Positions 8,817 through 48,659 of a DNA stretch of 64,000 nt are shown piece by piece (position 1 is the stretch's first letter; each line of letters begins with the position of its first letter). This DNA is from Pseudoxanthomonas wuyuanensis. Its GTDB lineage: Bacteria > Pseudomonadota > Gammaproteobacteria > Xanthomonadales > Xanthomonadaceae. The notes beneath the pieces are model-generated. The model made no database searches and was not told the origin of the DNA. It saw only the letters and a list, made by a program, of their open reading frames with translations. The stretch is from the NCBI RefSeq assembly GCF_900215535.1, contig NZ_OCND01000008.1, positions 1 through 64,000 of the forward strand, in the 5' to 3' direction. A program made the position numbers and the translations under genes.

Positions 8817-8821
8817 CGGAA

Positions 8822-10750
8822 TCACCACTCGGTTGTACGGAACGGCGAAGCCGGCAGGCCTTCGCGGTTGCTCAGATCGGCGTCGGTGGGATTGTCGCGC
8901 CAGGCATAGCGCACCGCGGCCGGTTGCGGCACCTGGCTGCTGTGCACCATCACCGTGGCGCCGACGATACGCGCCTGCGCCGGGTGGAACACCCGGTCGG
9001 CGCCGGCGATCTCGAAGCCGTGCACTTCATCGCCGCCGCCACGCACGGCCAGCGTGCTGCCCTGCAGCTCGAAACTCAGCACGGCGCGGTGGTCCTGGAC
9101 CGTCATGCCGCGGTAGACCGGCCCCGAGTACACCAGCTTCTGGCCGTAGGCCAGATGCCGGGCGGCCAGCGCCAGGCGGTGGCCGACGGTGCGCTTGTCG
9201 CGCGGATGGATGTCGTCGGCGTCGCCGACATCGATGATCACCGCCTGCGCGGTGGCCGGCAGCGCCAGCGTTGCGCTCTGCGATTCGCGCAGCACCGCCC
9301 ACGGGCTCTGCACGTTGCCCTGCGCGTCGGCGGTGTCGCCGGCGGAAATCCAGTTGGCCAACTGCGCCCACAGGAACGGCAGTTCCGGCGCATTCCAGTC
9401 CGCGCGCCAGCCGCGGATCATCGCGGCGAACAGCTCACGGTACCGTTGGTCGCCGCCCGGATAGGCATTGGACTCGCCCTGGTACCAGATGAAACCGCGC
9501 AACGGATACGGCTGCAGCGGGCGGATCATCTGGTTGTACAGCAGCGAATCGATCTGGTTCACGCCATCCTGCAATGCGACGCGGATACCGGCGGTGCGGA
9601 ACTTCCACGTGTCCGCGAGCGGCCGGCGCTGGCCGCCGGCCGGCTGCAGGTACACCTGCGCGGCGCTGCCGCCGATGCCGCCGTTGCCGCCGGTGTCGGT
9701 CACCTTCACCGCGATGGTGTTCAGGCCCGGACGCAGCACCGCCGCCGGCACCTTGTACACGCGCGGCACGTTCCAGCTCCTCTCCATGCCGCCGATCCGC
9801 TGGCCATTGACCCAGGCGATGTCGTCGTCGTCGATCTGGCCCAGGCCGAGTTCGAGGTCGCCTTTCGCCTCGCGGGCGCTCAGTTCGAACGTGGCGCGGT
9901 ACCAGGCGACGCCGTCCATCCCGGCATAGCCTTGCGTTTCCCACAAGGCCGGCACGCGGATGTCGGCCCAGTCGGATTCGTCCAGCCCGGCCACCGTCCA
10001 ATCCGCGTCCTGTGCGGGCGGCGCTTGCCAACGCGCTGTCAGCGCCTGCGTCTTGGCCGCTATCTCATCGTGCTTCGCTTGCCTCTGGCGCATCTTCTCC
10101 GCCAATGCGGCCGCATCGAGGCCGAGCATGTCCGGATCCATCCAGGCCTCGATCGAGCTGCCGCCCCAGCTGCTGTCGATAATGCCGATAGGCACGCCGG
10201 TGGTTTTGCGCAGTTCCTGGGCGAAGTAATAGGCCACGGCCGAAAAGTCGGCCACCGCCTGCGGCGATGCCGAGGCCCAGGCGCCGCCGGTCAGCCGCGC
10301 TTGCGGCTTTTCGGACCACGACTGGGGTACCTTGAAATGCCGTATCTGCGGATCGTCGGCGCGGGCGATCTCCGCTTCGGCACCGTCGGTCTCGCGCAGC
10401 GGCCATTCCATGTTCGACTGCCCCGAGGCCAGCCATACATCGCCGACCAGCACGTCCTGCACGGTGACGGTTTCGCCGTCGCCGCGCACGCGCAGCGCAT
10501 AAGGACCGCCGGCGGCATGCGCGGGCAGTTCGACGCGCCAGCTGCCATCGGCAGCCGCCTTCGCCGTAGCGCTGCGGCCATCGAAATCGACCTGAACCTT
10601 CGCGCCCGGCGAGGCCCAGCCCCACACCGGCAACGGCCGGTCGCGCTGCACTACGGCGCCATCGGAAAACAGCAGTGGCAGCTCAACCCGCGCCTGCGCG
10701 CATGGCGACAGCAGCAGCAACACCCCCAGCCAGGCAAGGGAGGGCTTCAT
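8822..10750 (-). CDS. CE20-type xyloglucan acetylesterase
   Basis: This 642-residue SGNH-type esterase has a signal peptide (about 1-20, ending AQA). The catalytic serine is in LASGQSNMEW (Ser112) and the Asp/His pair is in DDIHPRDKRTVGH (about 512-521). Between the halves of the esterase fold lies a beta-sandwich insert (about 240-370, with VNGQRIGGMERSW). That split arrangement is the hallmark of carbohydrate esterase family 20, founded on an enzyme of the Xanthomonas xyloglucan locus. It removes O-acetyl groups from galactosyl residues of xyloglucan so that GH35 can act. Its ATG overlaps the GH2 stop codon (ATGA), so translation is coupled. Generic annotation pipelines would call it sialate O-acetylesterase, which I consider misleading here. 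Confidence 0.85.
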   Translation of the reverse strand: MKPSLAWLGVLLLLSPCAQARVELPLLFSDGAVVQRDRPLPVWGWASPGAKVQVDFDGRSATAKAAADGSWRVELPAHAAGGPYALRVRGDGETVTVQDVLVGDVWLASGQSNMEWPLRETDGAEAEIARADDPQIRHFKVPQSWSEKPQARLTGGAWASASPQAVADFSAVAYYFAQELRKTTGVPIGIIDSSWGGSSIEAWMDPDMLGLDAAALAEKMRQRQAKHDEIAAKTQALTARWQAPPAQDADWTVAGLDESDWADIRVPALWETQGYAGMDGVAWYRATFELSAREAKGDLELGLGQIDDDDIAWVNGQRIGGMERSWNVPRVYKVPAAVLRPGLNTIAVKVTDTGGNGGIGGSAAQVYLQPAGGQRRPLADTWKFRTAGIRVALQDGVNQIDSLLYNQMIRPLQPYPLRGFIWYQGESNAYPGGDQRYRELFAAMIRGWRADWNAPELPFLWAQLANWISAGDTADAQGNVQSPWAVLRESQSATLALPATAQAVIIDVGDADDIHPRDKRTVGHRLALAARHLAYGQKLVYSGPVYRGMTVQDHRAVLSFELQGSTLAVRGGGDEVHGFEIAGADRVFHPAQARIVGATVMVHSSQVPQPAAVRYAWRDNPTDADLSNREGLPASPFRTTEW

Positions 10751-12600
10751 TGTTCAATCTCCTGGTAGTAGTTCCGGATCACCTGCCACGCCAGCTTGCG
10801 CTCGCCATGCTCGGACAGCAGGCCCTTGCGGTTATATCCGTTCTGGAAAGGATGCAGGCGCACCGGCGAGCGGAAATCCGACATGACCCACGGCGCCACG
10901 CCGCGCAGGAACGGAATCCGCCTGAGCATGCGCAGCTGCTTGTCGTAGAACTCCGCCTGGAATTCCTCGTTCCAGGCACTGGCCACATCGCTGGCGCCAC
11001 GATTGCCCAGCCGCGCCTCGGCGCCGAACTCGGTGATCAGCAGCGGCTTTCCGAACGGCTTCCACTCCGCCTGCTCGGGTTCGACCGGCCAGGGCGTGTA
11101 CCAGCCGAAATATTCGTTGACGCCGACCACGTCCAGCGACGCGATCAGCGGATCGGCAAAGGCCAGCGTATTGCCGTGGAAACCGGGCCCGTAGAAGGCG
11201 GCGCTGACCAGGCGGGTCGCATCCAGCTGCCGGCTGTACTGCGCCAGCGCCGCAAGCGCGGCATTGCGTTCGGGGCTGGGCGCGGTTTCGTTGGCGATGC
11301 CCCACAGCGCAACCGCCGCGCGGTTGCGGTCGCGGCCGATCATCTCGGCCAGCATCGCTTCCATCTTGCCGCGCATGTCCGCATCGGCGAAGTCGATGCC
11401 CTGGTAGACCGGAATTTCCTGCCACAGCAGCAGCCCCATGCGGTCGGCCAGGCGCACCAGGTGTTCGCTGTAGGGATAGTGCGCCAGACGGATGAAGTTG
11501 GCGCCCAGTTGCCTGGCCTGTTCCAGCAGCCGCTGCGCGTCTTCCTGCGAATGGGCGCGGCGGCTGTCGATCTCTTCGTGCAGATTGACCCCGCGCAGGA
11601 AGATGGGCTCGCCGTTGAGCAGTATCTCGTCGCCACGCACGGCAATGCTGCGGAAACCGATGTCTTCCTCCACCGCATCCTGCGGCGTGGATACCGCAAC
11701 GCGGTACAGCCTGGGGTTCGTCGGCGACCATAGCGCGAAAGGCGCCTGGAACTGCAGCTTCGCCACACCATCGGCGCCGGCCTGCACGCGTACATCCACG
11801 TCCAGTTCGGCAATGCGCACGCGCACCGGTTGCCGCGGCGCGGTGCCGGCCAGCTTCACCCAGCCTTCGACCTGATTCAGTGAGCCTGGCGCCAGCTGGA
11901 TGGCGTAGTCCTGGATGTAGGTCGCCGGGGTTTCCACCAGATCCACGTCGCGGGTCAACCCGCCGTAATTGAACCAGTCAAAGCCTTGCGCCGGAATGCC
12001 GTCGCGGCGACGCTCGTTGTTGACATGCACCATCAGGCGGTTTTCGCCGTCGCGCACCTTGTCGGTCAGTTCGAACTGGAACGGGGTGAAGCCGCCTTCG
12101 TGGCTGCCCAGCTTTTCGCCGTTGAGGAAGACATCGGCCTGATAGTTGGCGCCGCCGAAATGGACGAACAGGCGCCGCCCATTCTTGCTCGCGACGGTTC
12201 GGTCATAGTCGAACGCTTTGCGGTACCACACCGATCCTTCCAGCCAAGTCAGTTCCGGGCGCTGGGTATTGAAGTCGCCGGGTACGTCCAGGGTGAAGCT
12301 GTCGTCGAAACCGTACTCGTAGAAATCGTGCTTGCCGGTGGCGGTCTTGTCCTTCCACGCCGCCTTCCACTCGCCAATGCCCGAGCCGTAGGCATCCACC
12401 ATGGCTTGCCAGGCACCGTTGAGGCTGCGCCGCTGGCGTGCCGGCACATTGGTCAGCGGCGCCGGAACCGCGGTAGCCGCCTCCACGACCGGAGCGGACG
12501 TGGTAGCGGCATCCTGCGGTCGAGCCGTGTATCCCTGCGCCTGCGCCAACAGCGGCGAGCACATCAAAAGAATGGCGGTGAACTTGCGAACGCAGCGCAT
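10747..12600 (-). CDS. GH2 family glycosidase of the xyloglucan locus
   Basis: A 617-residue secreted GH2 protein: signal peptide at 1-21 (RKFTAILLMCSPLLAQAQ), sugar-binding jelly roll (about 60-240, with VWYRKAFDYDR and NYQADVFLNGEKLG), immunoglobulin-like domain (about 240-310) and TIM barrel. Acid/base Glu is in WGIANETAP and the nucleophile Glu in LLITEFGAEA. It lacks the C-terminal domains of long beta-galactosidases and resembles the beta-glucuronidase/beta-galactosidase length class. The start at 12600 is chosen because the signal peptide begins there; an in-frame ATG at 12663 would add 21 polar residues. Specificity is not clear from sequence: beta-galactosidase, beta-glucuronidase and alpha-L-arabinosidase-like GH2 activities are all possible. 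Confidence 0.8.
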   Translation of the reverse strand: MRCVRKFTAILLMCSPLLAQAQGYTARPQDAATTSAPVVEAATAVPAPLTNVPARQRRSLNGAWQAMVDAYGSGIGEWKAAWKDKTATGKHDFYEYGFDDSFTLDVPGDFNTQRPELTWLEGSVWYRKAFDYDRTVASKNGRRLFVHFGGANYQADVFLNGEKLGSHEGGFTPFQFELTDKVRDGENRLMVHVNNERRRDGIPAQGFDWFNYGGLTRDVDLVETPATYIQDYAIQLAPGSLNQVEGWVKLAGTAPRQPVRVRIAELDVDVRVQAGADGVAKLQFQAPFALWSPTNPRLYRVAVSTPQDAVEEDIGFRSIAVRGDEILLNGEPIFLRGVNLHEEIDSRRAHSQEDAQRLLEQARQLGANFIRLAHYPYSEHLVRLADRMGLLLWQEIPVYQGIDFADADMRGKMEAMLAEMIGRDRNRAAVALWGIANETAPSPERNAALAALAQYSRQLDATRLVSAAFYGPGFHGNTLAFADPLIASLDVVGVNEYFGWYTPWPVEPEQAEWKPFGKPLLITEFGAEARLGNRGASDVASAWNEEFQAEFYDKQLRMLRRIPFLRGVAPWVMSDFRSPVRLHPFQNGYNRKGLLSEHGERKLAWQVIRNYYQEIEQ

Positions 12601-12666
12601 GCCAGCCCCGTCAGGGAAGTTCAAGCCCACAGAATGCGTACTGATGTTATTTGGCTCCTTCATGGC

Positions 12667-14865
12667 TCAGCGCGGATCGCCATATACAATTCCTCGGCCG
12701 CCGGTGGCGAAGTACACCCTGCCATACAACCGCGGGTCCCCGGTGACGCTATAGATCTTGCCGAAGCGGTGCGCATCGTCATCGATGCACTGCCAACTGT
12801 TGCCGTCATCGTCAGAACGGAACAGGCCGGTCTTGCCCGCGACCTGGCCGAACAGATACAGCGTCGGCGTCGTGCTGCCCTGCCTGGGTTTGCCCAATCC
12901 CAGCGAGAAGGCGTTTTCGACGCTTGGCAGCCGCTCCAGATTGCCTGCCGACCAGCGCAGCAGGCCGCGCCAAGACGCGGTGAGATAGACCACGGCGCTG
13001 CGCTGCGGGTCGGGATGGAGCTCGGGGCGGAACCAGTCGCCGAATTCGCCGACCGCGCCCTGGACCTCCTTGAACTCGACGCCGCCGTTGCCGCTGACGT
13101 ACAGCTTGCCGGTCGCGCCATCGAATCCGTAATAGATGCCTTCGTCGACGCGATCGGCTTCGATTACCGCGGTGCCCGGCACGCCTTTGACCTTCTGCCA
13201 ACGCCCGCCGAAGTCGGCGGTGATCCAGGCGCCGGCGTTCTTCGGCTGCCAGATCACGCGCTTGCCGTCGGCGGCGATGGTGATGTGGCCGGCGCCCTCG
13301 CCTTCCGGCGGTTCGCTGGCGAACAGCTTCCAGTTCTTTCCGCCATCCAGCGAGTACGCTGCGCGCACCTCGTTATTGTTGCGATGGCGTACTGTGCCGC
13401 TGCGCACGATGATCGCCGGCGCCTGTCCGGCATAGGCGATGCTTTCGCCGTTTGTCAGCCGCGGCCCGGCAAACTGCAGCGGCGGCACGGCCAGGTCGTC
13501 ATGGCGGAAACCATCGATGTCGCCGATTGCGCTGAGCAGATGCGCACCTTCCGGCGGGCTGATCAAGTCCAGCGGGACGGTTTCTTCCAGGTAAGTGTTC
13601 TTGAACCACCACTGCACGCGCGACGTGCCGTCATCGAACGCGGTCAGATTGCGTGAGGCCCAGATGCCGTAGCCGGTGACGAACATCGCTTCATCGGAAT
13701 TGAACGGGTCGATTTCGATATCGGCCATCCAGTGCGGCGTGTGATCCGCCGTCCACGCCGAGATGCTGTGGTCGAAGTACGAACGTGCGAACAGCGGCTG
13801 CCAGCTGGCGCCGCCATCGGTGCTGCGGAAGATGTCGTCGTGTGGGCCGTAACGGGTGAATGTGCTGGCCAGCAGAACCTGCGGATTCTGCGGATCCACC
13901 GTCACCGCACCCCAACCGAAACCATCGCCCTCGGTGTCGGTGGATTGCGGCGCCGGCGTGATGTCGGTCCAGGCGCCGGTGGTGGGAACGAACTTCCACA
14001 CCGCGCCGTCGCTCATCTTGTCCGGACCCGGCAAGTCGGCATAGCTCAAGTAGTAGGTACCGTCGCTGCCGCGAGCCATATGGTTGGGGCGCAGCCCAAC
14101 CGGCTGTCCCTCCACCGCTTTCCAGCTGCGGCCGGCATCTTCGGAGACGTAGAGACTGGTTTCCTGCGTGGAAACGCCGGCATAGATGCGCGGCGTCGGC
14201 GCACCCGGCTGGCCGCTGACCGGATCGAATTCGACGAAGACGATGCCGATCCGCTGCTCGCCGTTCCAGCCCGGGACGCCCGCCGCGGACGAAGACGCGA
14301 TGGCGGGAAAACTCTTCATTTTCGACCAGCGTGCGCCGTGGTCTTCGCTACGCCACAAACCATCGCGGCGGGTGCCGAACAGCAGCACGCGGCCATCATT
14401 GGGATCCACCGCCAACCGTTCGCCATTGCCGCGCGAAAGCTCGTTGCCGCCCAGCTTGAACGGCAGATCGGTGCGCTGGAATGTGGCGCCGCGATCCTGC
14501 GAGCGCAGAATGGCGCCGTTGCCGACCTTGGGATTGGTATAGGTGCCGGCGGCCAGATACACGCGCGAAGTATCGGATGGATCGATGGCCAAGCTCTCGA
14601 TACCGGTCAGATTGACGTCCTCGACGCCGATCCAGTCGGTCAGCGCCACCCAGCGCTTGCCCGCATCGTCCCAGCGATAGGCTCCGCCCACATCGGTGCG
14701 CGCATAAGCCAGCCCGCGTTCGCCCGGGTGATAGGTCAGCCCGGTGACGAAACCGCCGCCGCCGATGGCCACGTTCTGCCAGCGGTAAGGCGCATCCGCC
14801 GCACCCGCCAATGGCGCCGCACACCCCAACAATACAAGCAGAACCGGTCGCAAGCGCCACCTCAT
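12667..14865 (-). CDS. GH74 endo-xyloglucanase, secreted
   Basis: This 732-residue enzyme has the two-propeller GH74 architecture, with repeated sialidase-like turns such as RSQDRGATFQ, RSEDHGARWSK, SEDAGRSWKA and RSTDGGASWQP. Catalytic Asp residues are recognisable in ARTDVGGAYRW (Asp58) and AIGDIDGFRHD (about 447-457). It cleaves the glucan backbone of xyloglucan, producing the oligosaccharides imported by the adjacent receptor. The signal sequence ends near LLGCAAPLAGAA; a lipoprotein-type cut before Cys14 is possible but the lipobox is weak. I chose the ATG at 14865; in-frame ATGs at 14886 and 14931 are alternatives, the last having a GGAG 11 bases upstream. It is separated from the receptor gene by a terminator and has its own regulatory element. 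Confidence 0.9.
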   Translation of the reverse strand: MRWRLRPVLLVLLGCAAPLAGAADAPYRWQNVAIGGGGFVTGLTYHPGERGLAYARTDVGGAYRWDDAGKRWVALTDWIGVEDVNLTGIESLAIDPSDTSRVYLAAGTYTNPKVGNGAILRSQDRGATFQRTDLPFKLGGNELSRGNGERLAVDPNDGRVLLFGTRRDGLWRSEDHGARWSKMKSFPAIASSSAAGVPGWNGEQRIGIVFVEFDPVSGQPGAPTPRIYAGVSTQETSLYVSEDAGRSWKAVEGQPVGLRPNHMARGSDGTYYLSYADLPGPDKMSDGAVWKFVPTTGAWTDITPAPQSTDTEGDGFGWGAVTVDPQNPQVLLASTFTRYGPHDDIFRSTDGGASWQPLFARSYFDHSISAWTADHTPHWMADIEIDPFNSDEAMFVTGYGIWASRNLTAFDDGTSRVQWWFKNTYLEETVPLDLISPPEGAHLLSAIGDIDGFRHDDLAVPPLQFAGPRLTNGESIAYAGQAPAIIVRSGTVRHRNNNEVRAAYSLDGGKNWKLFASEPPEGEGAGHITIAADGKRVIWQPKNAGAWITADFGGRWQKVKGVPGTAVIEADRVDEGIYYGFDGATGKLYVSGNGGVEFKEVQGAVGEFGDWFRPELHPDPQRSAVVYLTASWRGLLRWSAGNLERLPSVENAFSLGLGKPRQGSTTPTLYLFGQVAGKTGLFRSDDDGNSWQCIDDDAHRFGKIYSVTGDPRLYGRVYFATGGRGIVYGDPR

Positions 14866-15218
14866 CTGCGCACCAAAGGAAACCATCCTGTTGGTCGAAG
14901 CGCGTGAAGCAGAAGCGGAAATCAGCGACATCGGCAAACGGTCTCCATCAGGCGTGGTAACAACGGAAGCGACGAACCGGGCGAAGAAGCCACCCGCCTG
15001 CGCCCATGCGAGGGAGAGACTGCGCGGACAGAGGCGGGTGGACATGCCGGATGCCTGCTGCGCCGACCATCGCCCAAGACGCATTGGCATCCCTACTTCG
15101 GAAGCATCGGCGCCCCTTCCCGATGGCTGGAACAGTGCGAGTAGTTCCTGGCGCAGAAACGCAGCATGCGAAGCAAAACGAAACTCAGTTCAACCGCAGG
15201 ATAGGCGGCCGAGCCATT

Positions 15219-15252
15219 CCATACCAATGAAATATTCGCCGCGATCTATACC
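15219..15252 (-). promoter_or_regulatory. Shared operator upstream of GH74
   Basis: On the plus strand it reads CCATACCAATGAAATATT, eight variable bases, then TCTATACC. The same two blocks with the same spacing occur at 18638-18671 before the receptor, and a 21/30 match lies at 19782-19811 before the dgo operon. The core is an imperfect dyad with arms ACCAAT and ATTCGC around GAAAT. Likely target of the LysR protein encoded at 18767-19726 (inference). Confidence 0.7.
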
Positions 15253-15382
15253 TCTACCGAATGATGCAACGCACCATGTTAGTGGGAATCCGTGGATTGC
15301 AGGGTTTGCCGTGCAAAGACAACATCGACAGCGGTGAATCGTGCTGCGGCAGTCAAACTCTGATCAGCAGCGGAGCACCCGG

Positions 15383-15419
15383 CAAAGAAAAGGGGAGGGG
15401 TTGTGCCTCCCCTCCCCTT
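15383..15419 (-). terminator. Rho-independent terminator of the TonB receptor gene
   Basis: A perfect 11-bp stem (AAGGGGAGGGG at 15390-15400 with CCCCTCCCCTT at 15409-15419) and an 8-base loop, followed on the minus strand by TTTCTTT. It starts 16 bases after the receptor stop codon and separates that transcript from GH74. Confidence 0.88.
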
Positions 15420-15434
15420 GCAACCATATCGCGC

Positions 15435-18389
15435 TTAGAACGTGACGCGGAGCGTCGCAGCGTAGCGCCTGTCGTTGACGTACCAGGAGGTGACGCGACG
15501 GCCGGCGCCGTTCTGGTCCATGATGGTGCGCTGCTCGGCGTTGTTGATATTGTTCACTTCCAGGCCGAGCGAGATCTTGTCATTGAACTTGTAGAAGATC
15601 GAACCGTCCAGCTGGCCGAAGGCATCGCTGTACACCGGTAGCTTCCAGGCGATGCCGCCGTCGCCGCCGTTGTAGCCATTGGGTCCGATCGACAGCAGGT
15701 ACTCGCTGCGCCAGTTGTAGGCCAGACGGATCTGCCAAGGTCCCTTCTCGTAGAACGCAGCCACGTTGTAGGAGTTCTTGGACAGGCCATCGGCCGGCAG
15801 GTCGCCGAATGTCGAGCCATCGGTGTCGACCGGCTGCGTATCCAGATTGTTCGGCACCTTGGTGGAGCTGTCGATGTAGGTGTAGTTGGCCGACATGCCG
15901 AATCCGTCGAACGGAGCCGGCAGGAAGTCGAAGAACTGGGTCCAGCCGATCTCCGCACCTTGGACGCGTGCCGTACCGACGTTCACCGGGCGCGTGATCA
16001 GGTATTCGTATTCGTTGCCGTCGGCGCCCGGATAGGTAACGAACTGCGACTGGCGACGGAAGTAGTCCTTGATGTCCTTGCGGAAGAAGTTGACCCAGGC
16101 CATGCCGCCCTTGTCCGGATCGAAATACCACTCCAGCGACAGATCGAACTGGTTGGCCTTCATCGGCTCCAGGTACGGGTTGTCGTAGGAACTGCCGGTC
16201 AGATCCAGATCGGTGACCGGCAGCGTCTGGATGGGGTCATCCGGACCCGGCTGCTCAATGCCAGTCTTCGGGCTGGCGTTCAGTACCTGATAGGCCTGCA
16301 TGTCGCTGAACGCCGGACGGGCGATGGCCTTGGACGCGGCGAAACGCAGGATGACGTTATCGATCGGTTCCCAGCGCATATTCAGGCTTGGCAGGACGTC
16401 TGTATAGGAGTTGCTGGCCTTGACGGGCTCCGATTCGCCTGCACCCAGGTAGGGCGCATAGGCAACATTCGGGTAGATCAGATAACCGCTGGCGGCGTTT
16501 TCGGTGCGCACCACGCGCACGCCGATGTTGCCGTCCAGACGTGCATTGTCCAATCCGAAATTCAGCATCGCATAGGCGCCCCGGGTCGTTTCGCTCTGGA
16601 TGTTGGTGTGCTGCTCATCCAGTTCCGTGGTCGAGTAAGAGATGCAGCAGGCGTAATACGGGGCAGCGGCATCGTGGATGGCCTGGTAGCTGCCCGGAAA
16701 ACCAAGTGCCGTCGCCAGCACCGGCGCATAGAAGCCCCCCGGCGTGTTGGCGTCGCCGCGATAGAAGTTGTTGAACGTATTCAGGTGCACCAGGCTGGAA
16801 TTGATTTCGCTGTTGAGGTCCAGCGGTGGCATCCCATTGGTCAGCGCCCATCCCTGCATCCAGGTCTGGAACACCGGCTTCCAGTTATAGCCGGTATCGA
16901 TGCTGGTGGCATCGCGTTCGGTCACGCGCACGCCGAACTTGACCGCCTTGATAAAGCCGTTGTCGAAGCTGTGCTTGAGGTCGGCGCGCCAGGTCAACTG
17001 CTCGGCTTCGTTGTCGTCCCGATGGTCCATCGTGAAACCCCAATAGTAATTGTTGGGGTTACCGGTGAACTGCTCGTCGACGCCGATCGACGGCCTGCCG
17101 CCCCTGAGGTCGACATCGATATACGGCACGTTGACGCCCAATGACACCGTGGAATCCAGGACGTTGGTGGTGGCCTTGATGTACTGGAAGTCGGTGGTCA
17201 GTTCGGTGGCTTCGCTGAGCGACCACTTCAGGCCCAGCGAGAAATCGGTGGTCTTGGATTTGCGGTGGGAGGCGCGGATATCCGTGCCCATCGGAACGCC
17301 ACCGGGCTGGGTGAGCCGGCCGGAGCGGAACACGTTGCCGTCCAGCTCATAGGGCTGGCTGGTGTCGAGCCCTACCGCAAGTGGATCGTTCGAGACGAAG
17401 ATGGCATCCTCGTTCCAGAGTTCGTCGTATCTGCTCTGGAAGGCGGTGGCGTAGAGTTCGACGTCGTCGCTGGGGCGCCACTGCAGGGCCACGTAGGCGC
17501 CTTGGCGCTCGCGTTCGTATTCCAAGGTGCGCCAGTCGGCGCCGCGCGGCAGCCACAGGTTCTCGTTGGTGCCGTCGCCGTTGAGATCGGTATTGCTGTT
17601 GTTGAAGAACGGGCGCACGAACATGCCGTCGGTGCGGGTGGCCAGCTCCGAGTGCGTGATATCGACCAGCAAGCCGACCTTGCCGGCGCCGGTGTCCCAG
17701 GTATTGCTGTACAGCGCGGAAGCGGTAGGCTTCCATTTCTCGGAGAAGTCGCCGTAGTTCCCGCTGAGGCTGCCGCTGATGCGCTGGCCATCGAAATCGA
17801 ACGGCATGAAGGTGCGCAGATCCACGCTGCCGCCCAGACCGCCCTCGATCATGTCGGCCTTCTGGTTCTTGTAGACGTCCACGCCGGCCATCAGTTCGGC
17901 TGGCACGTCGGCGAAGCTCAGGGCGCGGCCACCGGAGGCGGAGAAGCTGTCGCGGCCGTTGAGTTCGGACCGGACCTGGGTCAAGCCACGCACCTGCACG
18001 CCGCCGCCTTCAGCTGAGAAGTGTTCCGGATCGCCCACCGACAGGAAGCGGTCGATGGTTACGCCGGGGATGCGCGACAGCGTTTCGGTGATGCTGCGGT
18101 CGGGCAGCGCGCCGATGTCCAGCGCGGTAACCGAGTCGACGAAGGTGTCGGAGTCGCGCTTGATATCCTGGGCGCGGTAAACCGAACCGCGGATGCCGGT
18201 GACGACGACCGTCTGCAGCTCGGTGGTGGCCTTCTCTCCCTCTTCTTCCGAAGGCGCGGCCTGTTGCGCATAGGCCGGCGCCGACAGCATCAGGGCGACG
18301 CCCAGCGCCAGCGCAGTGGGTTGCAGCTTGTGGCCGTTGTGACGACCCGCACGATGGACCGCCGCGCGGCGGCTCTGACGCGATGACAT
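15435..18389 (-). CDS. TonB-dependent receptor for xyloglucan oligosaccharides
   Basis: This 984-residue outer-membrane protein imports glycan oligosaccharides with energy from TonB-ExbBD. Features: signal peptide (about 1-41, ending APAYAQQ), a TonB-box-like TELQTVVVTGIRGS at about 53-66, a plug domain to about 180 (DIGALPDRSITETLSRIPGV, QVRGLTQVRSELNGRD), and a long beta-barrel ending in the aromatic C-terminus AATLRVTF. The start at 18389 is supported by a strong ribosome-binding site GGGAGGG eight bases upstream. It is the first gene of the xyloglucan region and the only TonB receptor in the window, so it may serve the second cluster too. Substrate is inferred from the locus; the family (Caulobacter-type TonB receptors for plant glycans) is clear. 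Confidence 0.9.
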   Translation of the reverse strand: MSSRQSRRAAVHRAGRHNGHKLQPTALALGVALMLSAPAYAQQAAPSEEEGEKATTELQTVVVTGIRGSVYRAQDIKRDSDTFVDSVTALDIGALPDRSITETLSRIPGVTIDRFLSVGDPEHFSAEGGGVQVRGLTQVRSELNGRDSFSASGGRALSFADVPAELMAGVDVYKNQKADMIEGGLGGSVDLRTFMPFDFDGQRISGSLSGNYGDFSEKWKPTASALYSNTWDTGAGKVGLLVDITHSELATRTDGMFVRPFFNNSNTDLNGDGTNENLWLPRGADWRTLEYERERQGAYVALQWRPSDDVELYATAFQSRYDELWNEDAIFVSNDPLAVGLDTSQPYELDGNVFRSGRLTQPGGVPMGTDIRASHRKSKTTDFSLGLKWSLSEATELTTDFQYIKATTNVLDSTVSLGVNVPYIDVDLRGGRPSIGVDEQFTGNPNNYYWGFTMDHRDDNEAEQLTWRADLKHSFDNGFIKAVKFGVRVTERDATSIDTGYNWKPVFQTWMQGWALTNGMPPLDLNSEINSSLVHLNTFNNFYRGDANTPGGFYAPVLATALGFPGSYQAIHDAAAPYYACCISYSTTELDEQHTNIQSETTRGAYAMLNFGLDNARLDGNIGVRVVRTENAASGYLIYPNVAYAPYLGAGESEPVKASNSYTDVLPSLNMRWEPIDNVILRFAASKAIARPAFSDMQAYQVLNASPKTGIEQPGPDDPIQTLPVTDLDLTGSSYDNPYLEPMKANQFDLSLEWYFDPDKGGMAWVNFFRKDIKDYFRRQSQFVTYPGADGNEYEYLITRPVNVGTARVQGAEIGWTQFFDFLPAPFDGFGMSANYTYIDSSTKVPNNLDTQPVDTDGSTFGDLPADGLSKNSYNVAAFYEKGPWQIRLAYNWRSEYLLSIGPNGYNGGDGGIAWKLPVYSDAFGQLDGSIFYKFNDKISLGLEVNNINNAEQRTIMDQNGAGRRVTSWYVNDRRYAATLRVTF

Positions 18390-18621
18390 GGTTGTTCCCT
18401 CCCAGGACTCAAACGATGACTGAATTATGTTGTGCGGACCGTGTGCGTCTACGCGCAGCGACAGTCCATTGGGTTCAACTGGTGTTGGTTTTCGCTTCCG
18501 GCGTGCGGATGGCCGGTTTTCCGCCGGTACCGCCGCCACTGCCCCGATGGGCCATCTGACTGTCCTGCCTGTCGTGTCAGAGGTCACAAAACCGTCAAGC
18601 AACGACTTCGTGCGCAGCATA

Positions 18622-18639
18622 GGCATGGCATGCCATGCC
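18622..18639. promoter_or_regulatory. 18-bp perfect palindrome next to the receptor operator
   Basis: GGCATGGCATGCCATGCC is its own reverse complement. It overlaps the first two bases of the shared operator and lies between that operator and the possible -10 box, the position of a repressor site or a second dimer site. GH74 has only a degraded counterpart (ATGGC and GCCTAT words) at the same place. Confidence 0.65.
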
Positions 18640-18671
18640 ATACCAATGAAATATTGGTCGACTTCTATACC
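18638..18671 (-). promoter_or_regulatory. Shared operator upstream of the TonB receptor
   Basis: Plus-strand blocks CCATACCAATGAAATATT and TCTATACC, separated by eight bases, are identical to those before GH74. Here the core is a perfect inverted repeat: ACCAAT, GAAAT, ATTGGT. It lies about 250 bases upstream of the receptor ATG. Confidence 0.75.
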
Positions 18672-18766
18672 TGTTTTGGAATAGGTGGGCCGAGTCGGCC
18701 GGCCTGTGGCGGGCTAGGCCGGGCCATCAATGGGGGGTGCCGCCGTTTTCAGTAGCGCCGGGGAAG

Positions 18767-19726
18767 TCACCGGCCCGACGGCTCCGGATACAACCGACGG
18801 GCGGTCGTTCGCAGGGCATCCAGCACCCGCTCGGCACCCGGCGACAGCAGTTGGTCGCGACGGCGGATGATGCCGAACGATTCCATGCGCACGCCCAGAT
18901 CGATGGCGACCACGTTCATCTGCGCGGTCTGCAGGTATGGAGCTACCGATTCGGCCGGCAGTGCGGCCAACAGGTCGCTATGGCGCAGCAGGTGGATGAT
19001 CACCGGCAGCGAGGCGGTCTCAACGATGTTCTGCGGCGGCGACAGTCCGTATTCCAGGAACATCGAATCCAGCCGCGCACGCAGCACGCTGGCCGCAGGC
19101 GGCATGATCCAGCCGTATTCCAGTAGGTCCGCATGGCTCACCTGGCTGCGCCCGGCCAGCGGATGGCCGGCGCGCACGATGACCGAGTGCGGCTCGTCCG
19201 CCAGCGGCTCGAACTGCAGTTCGCCGGCGCCTTCCGGGCCGATGATGCGGCCGATGACGATGTCCAGTTGCCCATCCAGCAGCTTGGCCACCAGCGGCCG
19301 GCTGTAGTCCATTTCCACCCGGATCAGGATGCCGGGAAAATCCCGTTTGATCGCGGCAATCGCCTGCGGCACCAGATTGGTGCCGGGATTGACCACGGTG
19401 CCGATGGCGGCCTGGCCGGTCAGCCCGCTGCGCAGCGATGCGATCTCGTCGTAGCCGCGGCCGATCTCCGACAGCGCCGAACGCGCCCGGCGGATCAGCA
19501 CCTGCCCGTACCAGGTCGGCTCCACGCCGCGGGCGTGGCGGTCGAACAGCGGCACTCCCAGCAGGCTCTCCATCTCGGCCAGCAGCTTGGATGCCGCCGG
19601 CTGGGTCATGTTGGCGGCTTCGGCCGCGCGCAGCACCGAACGTTGTTCGTACAGGTGCAGCAGCAACAGCAAGTGACGGGTTTTCAACCGCGACGCGTTG
19701 AACCAGCTGGTGCTCGGTTGGACCAT
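18767..19726 (-). CDS. LysR-family regulator, probably of galactose/xyloglucan genes
   Basis: A 319-residue LysR-type transcription factor. The N-terminal winged helix-turn-helix spans about 14-75 (LYEQRSVLRAAEAANMTQPAASKLLAEMESLLGVPLFDR), followed by a linker helix and a two-lobed effector domain (about 105-300). The HTH and effector parts resemble the GbpR-type LysR proteins that control sugar-binding and galactose genes. It diverges from the galactonate operon, the classic LysR arrangement, and lies just upstream of the TonB receptor on the same strand. The candidate binding site at 19782-19811 is in its divergent promoter and recurs before the receptor and GH74, so I infer control of all three. 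The inducer may be galactose or a galactonate intermediate. Confidence 0.87.
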   Translation of the reverse strand: MVQPSTSWFNASRLKTRHLLLLLHLYEQRSVLRAAEAANMTQPAASKLLAEMESLLGVPLFDRHARGVEPTWYGQVLIRRARSALSEIGRGYDEIASLRSGLTGQAAIGTVVNPGTNLVPQAIAAIKRDFPGILIRVEMDYSRPLVAKLLDGQLDIVIGRIIGPEGAGELQFEPLADEPHSVIVRAGHPLAGRSQVSHADLLEYGWIMPPAASVLRARLDSMFLEYGLSPPQNIVETASLPVIIHLLRHSDLLAALPAESVAPYLQTAQMNVVAIDLGVRMESFGIIRRRDQLLSPGAERVLDALRTTARRLYPEPSGR

Positions 19727-19781
19727 ACGGCGACCTTCCCTTCCTCGATTGCAGTGCTGTGCCGTTCAAGTATTCGCACGA

Positions 19782-19811
19782 GGAATAGCATATGACGAAA
19801 ATTTCATTTGT
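19782..19811 (+). promoter_or_regulatory. Shared operator in the LysR-dgo divergent promoter
   Basis: Read from the minus strand it matches the receptor operator at 22 of 30 bases, including ACNAATGAAAT, then TT, GTC and CTAT/CC positions. Relative to the plus-strand dgo genes its orientation is the same as that of the other two copies relative to their genes. A GGCTATTGG word about 21 bases downstream is at the spacing of the possible -10 boxes of the other two promoters. Confidence 0.62.
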
Positions 19812-19866
19812 CGAATATATATTTGCGAGCAAGGCTATTGGGGTGTAATGCCAGTTCCGCGAGGAA

Positions 19867-19998: not shown

Positions 19999-20154
19999 AT
20001 GGCGTATTTCATCGGCATCGTCGAAGCCGCCGGCTGCCTGCCGGCGCACCCACTGCGCCTGCCCGCATCCCACCGCAGCGTTGGGGCTGGCCGAACACCG
20101 GCATCCGGCGGCTGGCGCACGCCGGCGGCGGCATTGCGGCCGGTCCGCCCATGA
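19999..20154 (+). CDS. Small leader ORF coupled to the KDPGal aldolase gene
   Basis: This possible 51-residue peptide begins MAYFIGIVEAAGCLPAH and becomes Pro/Ala/Arg-rich; I recognise no family. It deserves listing because it has the best ribosome-binding site of the operon (GGAGGAGG, 5 bases before its ATG) and its TGA overlaps the ATG of the aldolase gene (ATGA at 20151), whereas the aldolase start itself has no Shine-Dalgarno sequence. Translation of the aldolase is therefore probably coupled to this ORF. An overlapping ORF from 19961 in another frame also has AAGGAGG before it. It could be a regulatory leader peptide, a real microprotein, or chance. Confidence 0.45.
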   Translation: MAYFIGIVEAAGCLPAHPLRLPASHRSVGAGRTPASGGWRTPAAALRPVRP

Positions 20155-20786
20155 CGGATGACGCTACCCTGGCCACGCCGACATTCCGGTTGCCGCTGAT
20201 CGCCATCCTGCGCGGCATTGGCCCGCAGGAAACATTGGCGCATGTGCAGGCGCTGATCGAGGAAGGCTACGACGCCATCGAGATTCCGCTCAATTCGCCG
20301 GACTGGGCGCGCAGCATCGGCGATGCGGTAAAGGCGTTCGGCGAACGCGCCTGGATCGGCGGCGGCACCGTATTGACACCGGTTGATGTCGACGCCCTGA
20401 CGGATCTGGGCGCGCGTTTCATCGTCACCCCCAACACCGATCCGCTGGTCATCGCGCATGCGCGGCGGCGCGGCCTGCAGGTCGTGGCCGGTTTTGCCAC
20501 TGCCAGCGAAGCCTTTGCCGCCATTGCCGCCGGCGCGCAGATGCTCAAGCTGTTTCCCGCTTCCACTTACGGGACCGGCCATGTACGCGCACTGCGCGCG
20601 GTATTGCCGTCCCTTCCCTTGTTCGTCGTCGGTGGCGTCAGCGCCAGCGCGCTGTCCGGCTACCTCTCGGCCGGCAGCTGCGGCGCCGGCATCGGCGGCG
20701 AACTCTACAAACCAGGTCAGCCGGTCGAGCGCACGCGGGAAAACGCGCGCGCCTTCCGGCAAGCCTATCTGGATACCCTGTCATGA
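20151..20786 (+). CDS. dgoA: 2-dehydro-3-deoxy-6-phosphogalactonate aldolase
   Basis: This 211-residue class I aldolase splits KDPGal into pyruvate and glyceraldehyde 3-phosphate in the De Ley-Doudoroff route. It shows LIAILRGI (16-23), Glu44 in [22 protein letters not shown], and the Schiff-base Lys133 in [11 protein letters not shown]. KDPGal rather than KDPG specificity is inferred from the following dgoD and dgoK genes. The start MTDDATL is consistent with the family; upstream codons in frame have no conserved features. It overlaps the leader ORF at its start and dgoD at its end (ATG at 20783 inside the TCATGA), so the operon is tightly packed. Confidence 0.93.
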
Positions 20787-21931
20787 AGATTGTGCGCCTC
20801 AGCACTTACCACGCCGCGCCGCGCTGGCTGTTCCTCAAGGTCGAGACCGACGAGGGCATCACCGGCTGGGGCGAACCGGTCATCGAGGGCCGTGCGCAGA
20901 CCGTGGAAGCGGCCGTGCACGAGCTGTCCGACTACCTGATCGGCCAGGATCCGTCGCGCATCAACGACCTCTGGCAGACCCTGTACCGCGGCGGCTTCTA
21001 TCGCGGCGGCGCGGTGCTGATGAGCGCCATCGCCGGCATCGACCAGGCCCTGTGGGACATCAAGGGCAAGGCGCTGGGCGTGCCGGTGTACGAACTGCTG
21101 GGCGGCAAGGTGCGCGACCGCATGAAGACCTACCGCTGGGTCGGCGGCGACCGGCCCGCCGACATCATCGCGCAGATCCACGAACTGAAGGCGCTGGGTT
21201 TCGACACCTTCAAGTTCAACGGCACCGAAGAGCTGCGCCTGATCGACAACGCCGCCGCCATCGATGCGGCGGTGGCCAAGGTCGCCGAGATCCGCGGCGC
21301 GTTCGCCAACGATGTCAGCTTCGGCATCGATTTCCACGGCCGCGTCAGCGTGCCGATGGCGCGCGTGCTGCTGCGCGAACTGGAGCCGTACCGGCCGCTG
21401 TTCGTCGAAGAGCCGGTGCTGCCGGAACAATCCGAGTACTACCGCCGGCTGGCCGATTCGACCTCGATTCCGTTGGCGGCCGGCGAGCGCATGTACTCGC
21501 GCTTCGAGTTCAAGCAGGTGCTGGCCGATGGCGGCCTGTCGATCCTGCAGCCGGATCTTTCGCATGCCGGCGGCATCACCGAATGCTTCAAGATTGCGGC
21601 GATGGCCGAAGCCTACGACGTCGGCTTTGCGCCGCACTGCCCGCTGGGCCCGGTGGCGCTGGCGGCCTGTCTGCAGGTCGACTTCGTCGCCCACAATGCG
21701 GTGCTGCAGGAACAGAGCATCGGCATCCACTACAACAACGGCGCGGATCTGCTGGATTACGTGCTGAACAAGGAGGATTTCCGCTGCGACAACGGCGACA
21801 TCGCCGCATTGCCCAAGCCGGGACTGGGCGTGGAAATGGACGAGCAGAGGCTGCTGGAAGCCAGCCGCCATCCCCCGGCCTGGCGCAATCCGCTGTGGCG
21901 CCACGCCGATGGCAGCATTGCCGAGTGGTGA
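20783..21931 (+). CDS. dgoD: D-galactonate dehydratase
   Basis: A 382-residue enolase-superfamily enzyme that dehydrates D-galactonate to 2-dehydro-3-deoxygalactonate. The residues used by characterised galactonate dehydratases are all in place: metal ligands Asp183, Glu209 and Glu235 ([27 protein letters not shown]), His185, and the catalytic His near 285 in [10 protein letters not shown]. Length and spacing match the family exactly. It overlaps dgoA by four bases and is followed within a few bases by the lactonase gene. This is the most specific enzyme of the set and fixes the pathway as galactonate degradation. Confidence 0.95.
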
Positions 21932-21935
21932 GCCG

Positions 21936-22856
21936 GTGAGCCGCCTCGACGAAAGCGGCTCCGCGCTGGCCACGCTGGCCATCGACAGCCGCTGCGTGCT
22001 GGCCGAATGCGTGCTGTGGTGCGAGCGCCGCCAGACGCTGTTCTGGACCGATATCGATGCCGCGCAGCTGTGGATGCATACGCCCGGCAGCGGCGTAACC
22101 CGGCAGTGGTCGCTGCCTGAAAAACTGGGCAGCCTGGCGCTGTGCGACGACGGCCGGTTGCTGCTGGCGCTGGCCAAACGGCTGGCGCTGGCGGACGTGG
22201 ACGGCGCGACGGACTCGCTGCCGCTGCAGTACCTGGCCGATATCGAACCGGATCTGGCCCATACCCGCAGCAACGACGGCCGCTGCGACCGCGACGGCAA
22301 TTTCGTCTTCGGCACCAAGAGCGAGCGCTCCGATCGGGCGCCGGCGGGATCGTTCTACCAGTTTTCCACGCGACACGGCCTGCGCCGCCTGCCGCTGCCG
22401 CACGCCGTCATCCCCAACTCGATCTGCTTCAGCATTGACGGCCGGACGATGTACTACTGCGACTCGGTGCAGCCGGCGATCTTCCGCTGCAACTACGACG
22501 CGGCCGGCGCCGGCGTTTCCGACGCGCGCGTCCTTGTCGCGCTGGAGCACCCGGATGGCTCGCCGGACGGTTCCATCATCGACGCCGAAGGCTGCCTGTG
22601 GAACGCGCAATGGGGCGCCGGCCAGGTGGTGCGCTACCGCCCCGACGGCAGTACCGACCGCGTGGTCGCGGTTCCGGTGAAAAATCCTTCCTGCTGCGCG
22701 ATTGGCGGCGATGCGATGGACCGGCTCTACATCAGCAGCGCGCGCGCGGAACTGGAAGCCGATGAGCTGGCGGCCATGCCGGCTTCCGGCGGCATCTTCC
22801 AATGGCCGCTTGGGCGCGCGCTCGGGCTGCCGGAAAGCAGGTTCCTGACCGCATGA
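21936..22856 (+). CDS. SMP-30/gluconolactonase-family lactonase (likely galactonolactonase)
   Basis: This 306-residue six-bladed propeller of the SMP-30/LRE family hydrolyses sugar lactones to acids; here D-galactono-lactone to galactonate is the obvious role. Metal-site motifs of the family are visible: LAECVLWCERRQTLFWTDID near the start (Glu ligand), RSNDGRCDRDGNFVFG, PNSICFSIDGRTMYYCDS and SPDGSIIDAEGCLWNAQWG. The GTG at 21936 gives the normal N-terminus; an ATG at 21909 would overlap dgoD by 23 bases. Its TGA overlaps the dgoK ATG. Arabinolactonase is an alternative, but the dgo neighbours argue for galactonolactone. Confidence 0.83.
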   Translation: MSRLDESGSALATLAIDSRCVLAECVLWCERRQTLFWTDIDAAQLWMHTPGSGVTRQWSLPEKLGSLALCDDGRLLLALAKRLALADVDGATDSLPLQYLADIEPDLAHTRSNDGRCDRDGNFVFGTKSERSDRAPAGSFYQFSTRHGLRRLPLPHAVIPNSICFSIDGRTMYYCDSVQPAIFRCNYDAAGAGVSDARVLVALEHPDGSPDGSIIDAEGCLWNAQWGAGQVVRYRPDGSTDRVVAVPVKNPSCCAIGGDAMDRLYISSARAELEADELAAMPASGGIFQWPLGRALGLPESRFLTA

Positions 22857-23755
22857 TTGCCGTCGACTGGGGCACCAGCAGCCTGCGCGTCTACCGGCTC
22901 GATGCCGGCGGCGCGGTTATCGCCCAGCGCCGCGCCGACCTCGGTATCGCCGCCTGCCAGGGGCAGTTCGCCGCCACCCTGCTGGCGCAGATCGAAGGTT
23001 GGGACGATCCGTGCATCGTCCTGTCCGGCATGGTCGGCAGCCGCCAGGGCTGGATGGAGGTGCCCTACGTCGATTGCCCCGCCGACGCGGCAACGCTGGC
23101 CGCGGGCGTGGTAAGCCTGCAGCCGCCGGAACTGCCGGGCCGCACGCTTTGGTTCGTCCCCGGCGTTGCCGACCGCAGCAACAGCCAGACGCCCGACGTG
23201 ATGCGCGGCGAGGAAGCCCAGATCTGCGCGCTGATCGAAGCGCTCAATCACGGCAGCCACATGATCTGCCTGCCCGGCACCCACAGCAAATGGGTCACCG
23301 TAAACCAGGGCCGCATCGACGGCATCAGCACCGCCATGACCGGCGAGGTCTACGCGGTGATGCGCCAGCACAGCCTGTTGGGCAGGTCGATGAACCAGGA
23401 GGAGACGCGCTTTGACGCCTTCGCCTTCGATGCCGGCCTGCGCCGCAGCGGCATGGCGGGCGGGTTGCTGCACCATCTGTTCGGCGTGCGGACGGCCGCA
23501 TTGTTTGACCAGCTCTCGGCCAGCGAATTGCCGTCGTATCTGTCCGGCCTGCTGATAGGCCATGAAATCCGCGCCTCGGACCTGTTCCAGCGGGTGCCGC
23601 GGCCGGTGCAGGTGCACCTGATCGGCAGCGACCGGCTGTTGTCGGCGTATGCGCATGCGCTGGTCTCGCTGGGCGTTGGCGTGCAACGGCACTCCGAACA
23701 ACTGGCCGCCACCGGCATCCATCGCATCGCGCGACAGCGCGGGCTGATCGACTGA
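22853..23755 (+). CDS. dgoK: 2-dehydro-3-deoxygalactonokinase
   Basis: A 300-residue sugar-acid kinase that phosphorylates KDGal for the aldolase. It begins IAVDWGTSSLRVYRLD (phosphate-binding loop), has SGMVGSRQGWMEVPYV, PDVMRGEEAQI and PGTHSKWV, all typical of DgoK, and is of normal length. The ATGA overlap with the lactonase gene shows translational coupling. With dgoD and dgoA it completes galactonate breakdown. A galactose dehydrogenase, needed for the first step, is not in the window. Confidence 0.93.
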   Translation: MIAVDWGTSSLRVYRLDAGGAVIAQRRADLGIAACQGQFAATLLAQIEGWDDPCIVLSGMVGSRQGWMEVPYVDCPADAATLAAGVVSLQPPELPGRTLWFVPGVADRSNSQTPDVMRGEEAQICALIEALNHGSHMICLPGTHSKWVTVNQGRIDGISTAMTGEVYAVMRQHSLLGRSMNQEETRFDAFAFDAGLRRSGMAGGLLHHLFGVRTAALFDQLSASELPSYLSGLLIGHEIRASDLFQRVPRPVQVHLIGSDRLLSAYAHALVSLGVGVQRHSEQLAATGIHRIARQRGLID

Positions 23756-48555: not shown

Positions 48556-48574
48556 ATATCAGAATCGATATAGA
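48556..48574 (+). promoter_or_regulatory. ATATCA-N6-ATATAGA element before GH2
   Basis: Plus-strand copy, with GAATCG as the six-base spacer, ending 85 bases before the GH2 start. The pair suggests that both arms of this cluster answer to one regulator, which is not encoded in the window. Confidence 0.6.
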
Positions 48575-48659
48575 ATCCGGCGATATTGTTATTTTCTAAG
48601 TATCAATAGGCCTTGTAGCATCAGGACGCTAAGCGTCGATGGGCGATCAGGAGGCCACT

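What the first reader, a model, noticed from the sequence alone, without database searches (positions are those of the whole stretch)
15219..19811. One operator links the TonB receptor, GH74 and the galactonate operon
Seen: 18638-18671 and 15219-15252 share an 18-base block (CCATACCAATGAAATATT), an 8-base spacer and TCTATACC. On the other strand, 19782-19811 matches the receptor copy at 22 of 30 positions. All three have the same orientation relative to the gene they precede, and each is followed about 20 bases later by a CTAT-containing word that could be a -10 box. Inference: the LysR protein at 18767-19726 binds this element and ties xyloglucan uptake and depolymerisation to galactose breakdown. 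I know of no described site with this sequence.
Basis: partly seen in the sequence, partly recalled or inferred. Interest (0 to 1): 0.78.

Follow-up and report, generated by a model that had tools for sequence, protein, structure and literature searches.

The report
Shared galactose-regulator operator for xyloglucan genes
A conserved DNA element in front of sugar-uptake, xyloglucan-cutting and galactose-breakdown genes very probably lets one regulator (a GamR-like LysR protein) switch them on together, a link I did not find stated in the passages I could read.

Summary
The receptor, GH74 and lysR/galactonate copies align without gaps over 39 bp, and the element recurs in Pseudoxanthomonas, Xanthomonas, Stenotrophomonas, Luteimonas, Lysobacter and Rhodanobacter. 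In the window's genome (4.67 Mb) a model trained only on relatives lists six places at E<=10: GH74, TonB receptor, an unlinked GH5, an unlinked GH43 pair, lysR/dgo, and the promoter of a LysR paralogue. In 38 genomes of the genus the receptor-type element occurs in 19 of 19 with the LysR orthologue and, below E 0.1, in 0 of 19 without it. In an unnamed genus that I take for Xanthomonas the element also precedes a TonB receptor-GH53 galactanase operon (11 of 11 loci fetched). The LysR protein is most likely GamR, the published galactose-metabolism regulator (XAC1767, beside the xyloglucan locus). Regulator and genes are known kinds; new, as far as I could search, is the operator and its extension of GamR control to xyloglucan and galactan capture. 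Binding, effector and activation are inferred. The copy directly before GH74 is lineage-specific, and one genome (G092) keeps sites in a decayed locus without the regulator.

The parts
18633..18671 (-). Operator (class B) before the TonB-dependent receptor gene; strand given is that of the gene served; the site reads CCATGCCATACCAATGAAATATTGGTCGACTTCTATACC on +
   Evidence: E 3.7e-7 with a model from relatives
15214..15252 (-). Operator (class B) before the GH74 gene
   Evidence: E 1.6e-9
19782..19820 (+). Operator (class A) in the lysR-galactonate intergenic region; serves dgo (+) and probably lysR (-)
   Evidence: score 67.0; 30.7 with class B matrix; E 0.035
18616..18622 (-). Putative -10 region of the receptor promoter (CTATGCT)
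   Evidence: position, recurrence; inference
15198..15204 (-). Putative -10 region of the GH74 promoter (CTATCCT)
   Evidence: inference
19835..19841 (+). Putative -10 region of the galactonate operon (CTATTGG)
   Evidence: inference
18767..19726 (-). LysR-type regulator, probable GamR orthologue (319 aa)
   Evidence: Xanthomonas gene order
15435..18389 (-). TonB-dependent receptor (984 aa, TonB-Xanth-Caul)
12667..15090 (-). GH74 endo-xyloglucanase-like enzyme; best solved relative 7kn8 (E 2.1e-291), others named xyloglucanase
   Evidence: Pfam shows only BNR/sortilin repeats
10747..12663 (-). GH2 enzyme of the xyloglucan locus
8822..10750 (-). SASA-type carbohydrate esterase (best solved relative 7kmm)
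7071..8828 (-). GH35-like beta-galactosidase (solved relatives 8fa4, 7kmn)
20151..20786 (+). 2-dehydro-3-deoxy-6-phosphogalactonate aldolase
20783..21931 (+). galactonate dehydratase
   Evidence: 657.7 bits, cut-off 311
21909..22856 (+). SMP-30/gluconolactonase-like lactonase
22802..23755 (+). 2-keto-3-deoxygalactonokinase

Best explanation
The element is the operator of the LysR-type regulator at 18767-19726, which is most likely GamR, the galactose-metabolism regulator. A GamR oligomer is proposed to bind about 39 bp per promoter: an upstream half GGWATAG (in gene direction) and a dyad around ATTTCATT that reaches the -35 region, before a CTATGCT-like -10. At lysR/dgo the same site would serve both directions (activation of dgo, autoregulation of lysR), the classical LysR layout. 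When xyloglucan side chains release galactose (or it is oxidised to galactonate), GamR activates dgo to burn it, and also the outer-membrane receptor and the depolymerases (GH74; elsewhere in the genome a GH5 and a GH43 pair) that bring in more: a feed-forward loop keyed to galactose. SHOWN: the sequence element, its 39-bp gapless conservation, its orientation, its rarity, the genes it precedes, and its co-occurrence with this LysR gene in the genus. INFERRED: that this protein binds it, that binding activates, and that galactose or galactonate is the signal.
For: Matrices trained separately on lysR/dgo sites and on receptor-type sites of relatives each find the other class in the window, with nothing close behind (A: 67.0, 26.6, 24.7, then 13.6; B: 57.0, 51.0, 30.7, then 3.7). 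No hit >=15 of the lysR/dgo matrix in reversed sequences of the 51 named loci. Own genome: six hits at E<=10. Genus: the window's receptor/GH74 pattern occurs in 16 of 38 genomes, exactly the 16 with a LysR orthologue of >=85% identity; with model R1 19 of 19 against 0 of 19 below E 0.1. 16 of these 19 lack a second, paralogue-like LysR match at E<=1e-60, and G128, which has only the paralogue, has no site. Of 135 sites >=20 in 68 loci, 63 are at lysR/dgo, 63 before a TonB receptor, 4 before GH74, 2 before the esterase, 1 at dgoA in a locus whose lysR is in two pieces, 2 unassigned by the rule (L047; L079, there 36 bp before its LysR match); 0 in reversed sequence. Sites also precede a GH43 pair and a GH5 gene, and in genus g17 a receptor-GH53 galactanase operon in 11 of 11 fetched loci, whose receptor is 25% identical to the window's, so gene ancestry does not explain the shared element. 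Literature: GamR is XAC1767 and the xyloglucan locus begins at XAC1768; xyloglucan oligosaccharides induce XAC1768-1774 and two unlinked GH43 genes in X. citri (PMC8245568, passages). GamR is described as a galactose-metabolism regulator in X. oryzae (passages).
Against: No binding or expression data. The class A and B arms differ (CGACAAATGAAATTTTCGTC against ATACCAATGAAATATT), so affinity may differ or a second protein may share the sites. The paralogous LysR at G000:C19 has almost the same recognition helix and a similar box before it. Receptor sites are linked to lysR on the chromosome, so co-occurrence is partly linkage, and GH74 never occurs without the LysR gene in the genus. R1 was trained partly on genus members, so only the negative half and the pattern are independent there. 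In g17, G092 keeps two sites on one contig although its best LysR match genome-wide is only 27% identical; locally only a 17-residue remnant of lysR is left, the receptor matches in two frames and GH74 is a remnant, so I read it as a decayed locus. G392 lacks both LysR orthologue and full-length sites. Rhodanobacter loci L055 and L074 have a receptor site but no lysR site >=20. 4 of 62 loci with a receptor have no receptor site. The GH43-pair site has no CTAT word at the expected distance. The primary GamR paper was not readable.
Confidence: 0.77

Rival explanations
1. The receptor/GH74 (class B) sites are bound by another LysR protein, such as the paralogue in the pentose-oxidation locus, and only resemble the lysR/dgo site because the proteins are relatives.
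For: Paralogue 41% identical with a near-identical recognition helix; its own promoter carries AATGCAATTTT-N9-CTATACC; both proteins score best on the PcaQ model, below its cut-off. G092 keeps sites without the GamR-like gene.
Against: 16 of 19 genus genomes with class B sites lack a paralogue match at E<=1e-60, and G128, with the paralogue but without the GamR-like gene, has no site. Class B sites lie beside the GamR-like gene across genera.
Confidence: 0.1
2. GamR binds all sites but the signal is not galactose or galactonate (for example an oligosaccharide), or it acts as a repressor released by sugar.
For: The effector is unknown here; the dyad overlaps the presumed -35 region, compatible with repression too. 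In X. citri induction of the locus was shown with xyloglucan oligosaccharides.
Against: A common denominator of the targets is galactose: galactonate breakdown genes, xyloglucan (which can carry galactose) and GH53 galactanase. GamR is described as a galactose-metabolism regulator.
Confidence: 0.15
3. The element is a core-promoter feature or a dispersed repeat, not an operator.
For: It lies just upstream of -10-like words.
Against: Six places listed in 4.67 Mb; absent below E 0.1 from the 19 of 38 genus genomes that lack the regulator; same spacing in promoters of unrelated genes.
Confidence: 0.03

Closest known systems
GamR, LysR-type galactose-metabolism regulator (X. oryzae; XAC1767 in X. 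citri)
   Same: LysR protein beside a galactonate operon and next to the TonB receptors of the xyloglucan locus; the protein at that place is 74-76% identical in named Xanthomonas loci and 75-77% in the intact g17/g7 loci.
   Different: Targets named in the passages I saw are galactose metabolism and hrpG/hrpX; control of xyloglucan and galactan capture genes, and this 39-bp operator, are not stated there.
Xanthomonas xyloglucan utilization locus (XyGUL, XAC1768-1774)
   Same: TonB receptor, GH74, esterase and GH35 in the same neighbourhood beside the LysR gene.
   Different: Window has one receptor where X. citri has two, and a GH2 gene between GH74 and the esterase; GH74 has its own operator copy.
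PcaQ-type LysR regulators and LysR operators in general (T-N11-A; motif recalled)
   Same: Best NCBIfam model is PcaQ (201.2 bits); T-N11-A is present with invariant or nearly invariant ends.
   Different: Below the PcaQ cut-off of 303.8; no pca gene was among the families found for the neighbouring ORFs scanned.
XylR (LacI-type) and XygS/XygR (two-component) regulators of xylan/xyloglucan genes
   Same: Regulators of hemicellulose capture (seen as titles in reference lists).
   Different: Other protein families.

Membership tests
GamR orthologue | LysR HTH plus substrate-binding domain | tested here: met
   PF00126 and PF03466
GamR orthologue | divergent from a galactose/galactonate operon | tested here: met
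   dgo genes; same in relatives
GamR orthologue | beside xyloglucan TonB receptors as XAC1767 is beside XAC1768 | tested here: met
   window and g17 loci; X. citri numbering from PMC8245568
GamR orthologue | direct sequence comparison with XOO_2767 or XAC1767 | not tested
   neither record was fetched by name; 74-77% identity to the proteins at that place in named Xanthomonas and unnamed g17/g7 loci
GamR orthologue | binds the galactose operon promoter and activates it | not testable with these tools
   primary paper not held
LysR-type operator | T-N11-A in the site (motif recalled) | tested here: met
   alignment columns 35 and 23 (A35 invariant, T23 at least 90%); weak test in an A+T-rich site
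LysR-type operator | site in the divergent promoter of the regulator gene itself | tested here: met
   63 of 68 loci; 24-119 bp before the LysR match
PcaQ | NCBIfam curated score cut-off 303.8 | tested here: not met
   201.2 bits

The most novel reading that the evidence does not exclude
GamR is the master regulator of galactose-bearing wall polysaccharides in Lysobacteraceae: one operator type coordinates galactose breakdown with capture of xyloglucan and pectic galactan, including unlinked GH5, GH43 and GH53 loci, so a terminal side-chain sugar, not the backbone, is the signal for the whole xyloglucan system.
Probability: 0.6. Interest if true: 0.65.

Novelty: new member of a known kind. Interest (0 to 1): 0.52.

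Why it matters
Induction of the Xanthomonas xyloglucan locus by its oligosaccharides has been shown (PMC8245568, passages), but I saw no regulator named for it in the passages read. The operator gives a directly testable answer across a family of plant-associated and environmental bacteria, and a search model that predicts further members of the regulon.

Tried and rejected
Chance: rejected. Dispersed repeat or core promoter: rejected by rarity. Match G000:C14:198568 (2 mismatches): lies inside a long ORF (L128 8307-9881) and is not listed by model R1, taken as chance. Five further matches have 3 mismatches and were not followed. Window 48567-48605 (13.6 with the first matrix, 3.7 with the second) before a GH2 gene: taken as A+T-rich chance. 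g17 hits covering only model positions 7-26, 9-30 or 8-32: five loci fetched (L201-L205), not followed further. I did not look for the element at hrpG/hrpX. Structure prediction was not used: the fold is not in question. Rows dropped: L076, L077 and L079 were left out when collecting class B sites, and L049:9019 was left out of the class B matrix (32 sites). Alignment A1 keeps 29 of the 33 distinct class B sequences; left out were those of L064/L143, L049:9019, L068 and L137/L145. L076 and L077 were left out of the first matrix (45 of 47 sites).

Novelty searches: (listings and abstract starts); passages read. Of the papers held, only PMC8245568 has both 'XyGUL' and 'GamR'; it links GamR to hrpX, not, in the passages seen, to the xyloglucan genes. 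Supplements were not read. The abstract of the GamR paper is known to me only by recall and is not used as evidence beyond what quote.

Full report
1. Observation. The two copies at 15219-15252 and 18638-18671 and the third at 19782-19811 are in the sequence as described, and 22 of 30 identities are right. The skeleton AATGAAATNTT-N9-CTATNCC occurs three times in the window, each exact, against 0.08 expected at up to three mismatches.

2. What surrounds it. The window belongs to Pseudoxanthomonas: genome G127 of its genus and the named record of P. sacheonensis carry the LysR gene at the same coordinates. Genes: GH35-like, SASA esterase, GH2, GH74, TonB receptor, LysR, then divergently KDPGal aldolase, galactonate dehydratase, lactonase, KDGal kinase. 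Solved relatives of GH74, esterase and GH35 include 7kn8, 7kmm and 7kmn; by recall these come from the Xanthomonas xyloglucan study.

3. The lysR/dgo site is conserved. Of 51 named loci fetched with the LysR protein, 47 show a core within 4 substitutions of CAAATGAAATTTT upstream of lysR, mostly 53-77 bp before the start; L055, L067, L074 and L079 do not (L067 begins at lysR). A 39-bp matrix from 45 of these sites (effective number 9.2), without the window, has the consensus CTATGTTCGACAAATGAAATTTTCGGCATATTCTATTCC. It gives the window's own intergenic site 67.0, the receptor site 26.6 and the GH74 site 24.7; the next value is 13.6. On the 51 loci read backwards it gave no hit >=15 (largest 7.3).

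4. The receptor-type site is conserved too. With this matrix, sites of the form CATGCCATACCAATGAAATATT-N9-CTATNCC appear downstream of lysR in many loci. A second matrix from 32 such sites, again without the window, scores GH74 57.0, receptor 51.0, lysR/dgo 30.7, next 3.7. 0 of 2000 column-permuted matrices reach the cross-class scores on the respective promoters. The two classes align without a gap over 39 bp.

5. Whole genome. A sequence-only model of 29 receptor-type sites from relatives (R1) lists six places in the window's genome at E<=10, from the best 150 of 657 candidates: GH74 1.6e-9, receptor 3.7e-7, C20:801715 1.5e-6, C20:794209 4.9e-4, lysR/dgo 0.035, C19:23827 0.56. C20:801715 lies 142 bp before a GH5-ricin gene; its best solved relative is named cellulase cel5D, and an exo-xyloglucanase (4w8a) and a xyloglucanase (2jep) are among the first five. 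C20:794209 lies 212 bp before two GH43 genes; for the first the best solved relatives are 7erl (named beta-xylanase), 7jvh (GH43_12) and BoGH43A, for the second GH43 enzymes 6ms3/6ms2. Both sites are in the right orientation. C19:23827 is the promoter of a LysR paralogue (41%) in a locus with xylose dehydrogenase-like, arabinonate dehydratase-like and alpha-ketoglutaric semialdehyde dehydrogenase-like genes.

6. Genus. The pattern from the window (up to 3 mismatches) hits 16 of 38 genomes, exactly those with a LysR orthologue of >=85% identity; 0 control matches. R1 finds receptor-type sites in 19 of 19 genomes with LysR at E<=1e-120 and nothing below E 0.1 in the other 19 (lowest 0.102, partial matches). 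R1 was partly trained on genus members, so the positive half is not independent. GH74 of >=60% identity occurs in 15 of 38 genomes, all with the LysR gene, so regulator and target cannot be separated inside the genus. 16 of the 19 have no paralogue match at E<=1e-60, and G128, with only the paralogue, has no site.

7. Other genera. In 68 loci (51 named, 17 unnamed) a combined matrix finds 135 sites >=20: 63 at lysR/dgo, 63 before a receptor, 4 before GH74, 2 before the esterase, 1 at dgoA (L145, where lysR is in two pieces), 2 unassigned; 0 in reversed sequence and 0 for each of 20 permuted matrices. The matrix was trained on 44 sites, many from these loci, so this shows where the sites lie rather than being an independent test. 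58 of 62 loci with a receptor have the site before a receptor (without: L048, L058, L062, L078); 63 of 68 have the lysR site; 4 of 45 loci with GH74 have one directly before GH74. In L035 and L049 the second site precedes a second receptor.

8. Xanthomonas. Genus g17 is unnamed; I take it for Xanthomonas from gene order (LysR, two receptors, GH74, esterase as XAC1767-1771) and genome size. In its 13 loci the lysR/dgo site scores 59.4-65.3 with the first matrix and a class B site precedes a receptor, the second of two in 10 of them; in 3 of 13 a weaker one (10.4-13.5) precedes the first. R2 (combined model, window included) gives best E-values of 3.9e-7 or lower in 34 of 35 g17 genomes; G392 has only partial matches (0.112). 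G392 and G092 have no LysR orthologue (best match 27%). G392 thus fits; G092 does not at first sight, since it keeps two sites on one contig, but there only a 17-residue remnant of lysR remains, the receptor matches in two frames and GH74 is a remnant: a decayed locus. By my count of the list, 30 of 35 genomes have a further near-full-length match away from lysR (E 0.02-0.46). I fetched 11 of these 30: in 11 of 11 it precedes a TonB receptor-GH53 galactanase operon, right orientation, with CTTCTACCCT at the usual -10 distance. That receptor is 25% identical to the window's.

9. Promoter geometry. In gene direction the order is GGWATAG, 12 bases, ATTTCATT, then about 21-26 bases to a CTAT word. 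In 70 receptor-type sites CTAT starts 7-12 bases beyond the element in 48 (CTA in 64), against 0 at 20-25; in 65 lysR/dgo-type sites at 12-17 in 36 (CTA in 50), against 3 (CTA in 4) at 25-30. The GH43-pair site lacks it. Inference: dyad centre near -41 to -45, upstream half near -60, as expected for a LysR activator; at lysR it would allow autoregulation.

10. Known or new. GamR is a published LysR regulator of galactose metabolism in X. oryzae that also affects hrpG/hrpX (quoted; primary paper not held). Vieira et al. 2021 identify GamR as XAC1767, show induction of XAC1768-1774 and two unlinked GH43 genes by xyloglucan oligosaccharides, and propose galactose acts through GamR on hrpX (PMC8245568, passages). 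I saw no statement that GamR controls the xyloglucan genes, nor this operator (searches listed in Tried and rejected). The unlinked GH43 pair found here by sequence alone is a parallel; orthology to XAC1275/XAC4183 was not tested.

11. Verdict. Real, conserved, and best read as the GamR operator joining galactose breakdown with xyloglucan (and in g17 galactan) capture. Binding and signal remain untested.

Noticed in passing
G000:C19 (L127:8862-9800, site 9827-9865): LysR paralogue (41%) in a Weimberg-type pentose-oxidation locus has a similar box (AATGCAATTTT-N9-CTATACC) in its promoter; a LysR sub-family with related operators.
   Followed up: partly
G000:C20 (L126:9209-16753): Unlinked GH43-GH43 pair and GH5-ricin gene each carry the operator, 212 and 142 bp upstream; possibly a second xyloglucan island of the same regulon.
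   Followed up: partly
window 39323-41464 (-): A second GH74 gene, 39% identical to the first; the window scans show no operator before it.
   Followed up: no
L055 and L074 (Rhodanobacter): Receptor-type operator is kept (49.6, 50.4) although no lysR intergenic site reaches threshold and no dgo gene was matched next to lysR.
   Followed up: no
L076, L077, L079 (beta-proteobacterial or MAG loci): More distant LysR relatives (52-54%) also have a related site (34-36 with the combined matrix) 36-70 bp before the LysR match, without matched dgo genes in the expected direction.
   Followed up: no
L044:7021-7812 (-): Stenotrophomonas operon has an SDR dehydrogenase (candidate galactose dehydrogenase) before the aldolase; in the window the stretch from the presumed -10 to 20151 (about 310 bp) is too short for one.
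   Followed up: partly
L145:7907-8847: LysR gene is in two pieces in this genome (G346) although lysR/dgo and receptor sites are present (64.8, 22.5).
   Followed up: no
L210 (G092:C294:1-6000): Decayed xyloglucan locus: 17-residue remnant of lysR, receptor in two frames, GH74 remnant, esterase kept; operator copies still recognisable.
   Followed up: partly
window 48567-48605 (-): Weak A+T-rich match about 30 bp before a GH2 gene at 48639; core not conserved.
   Followed up: partly
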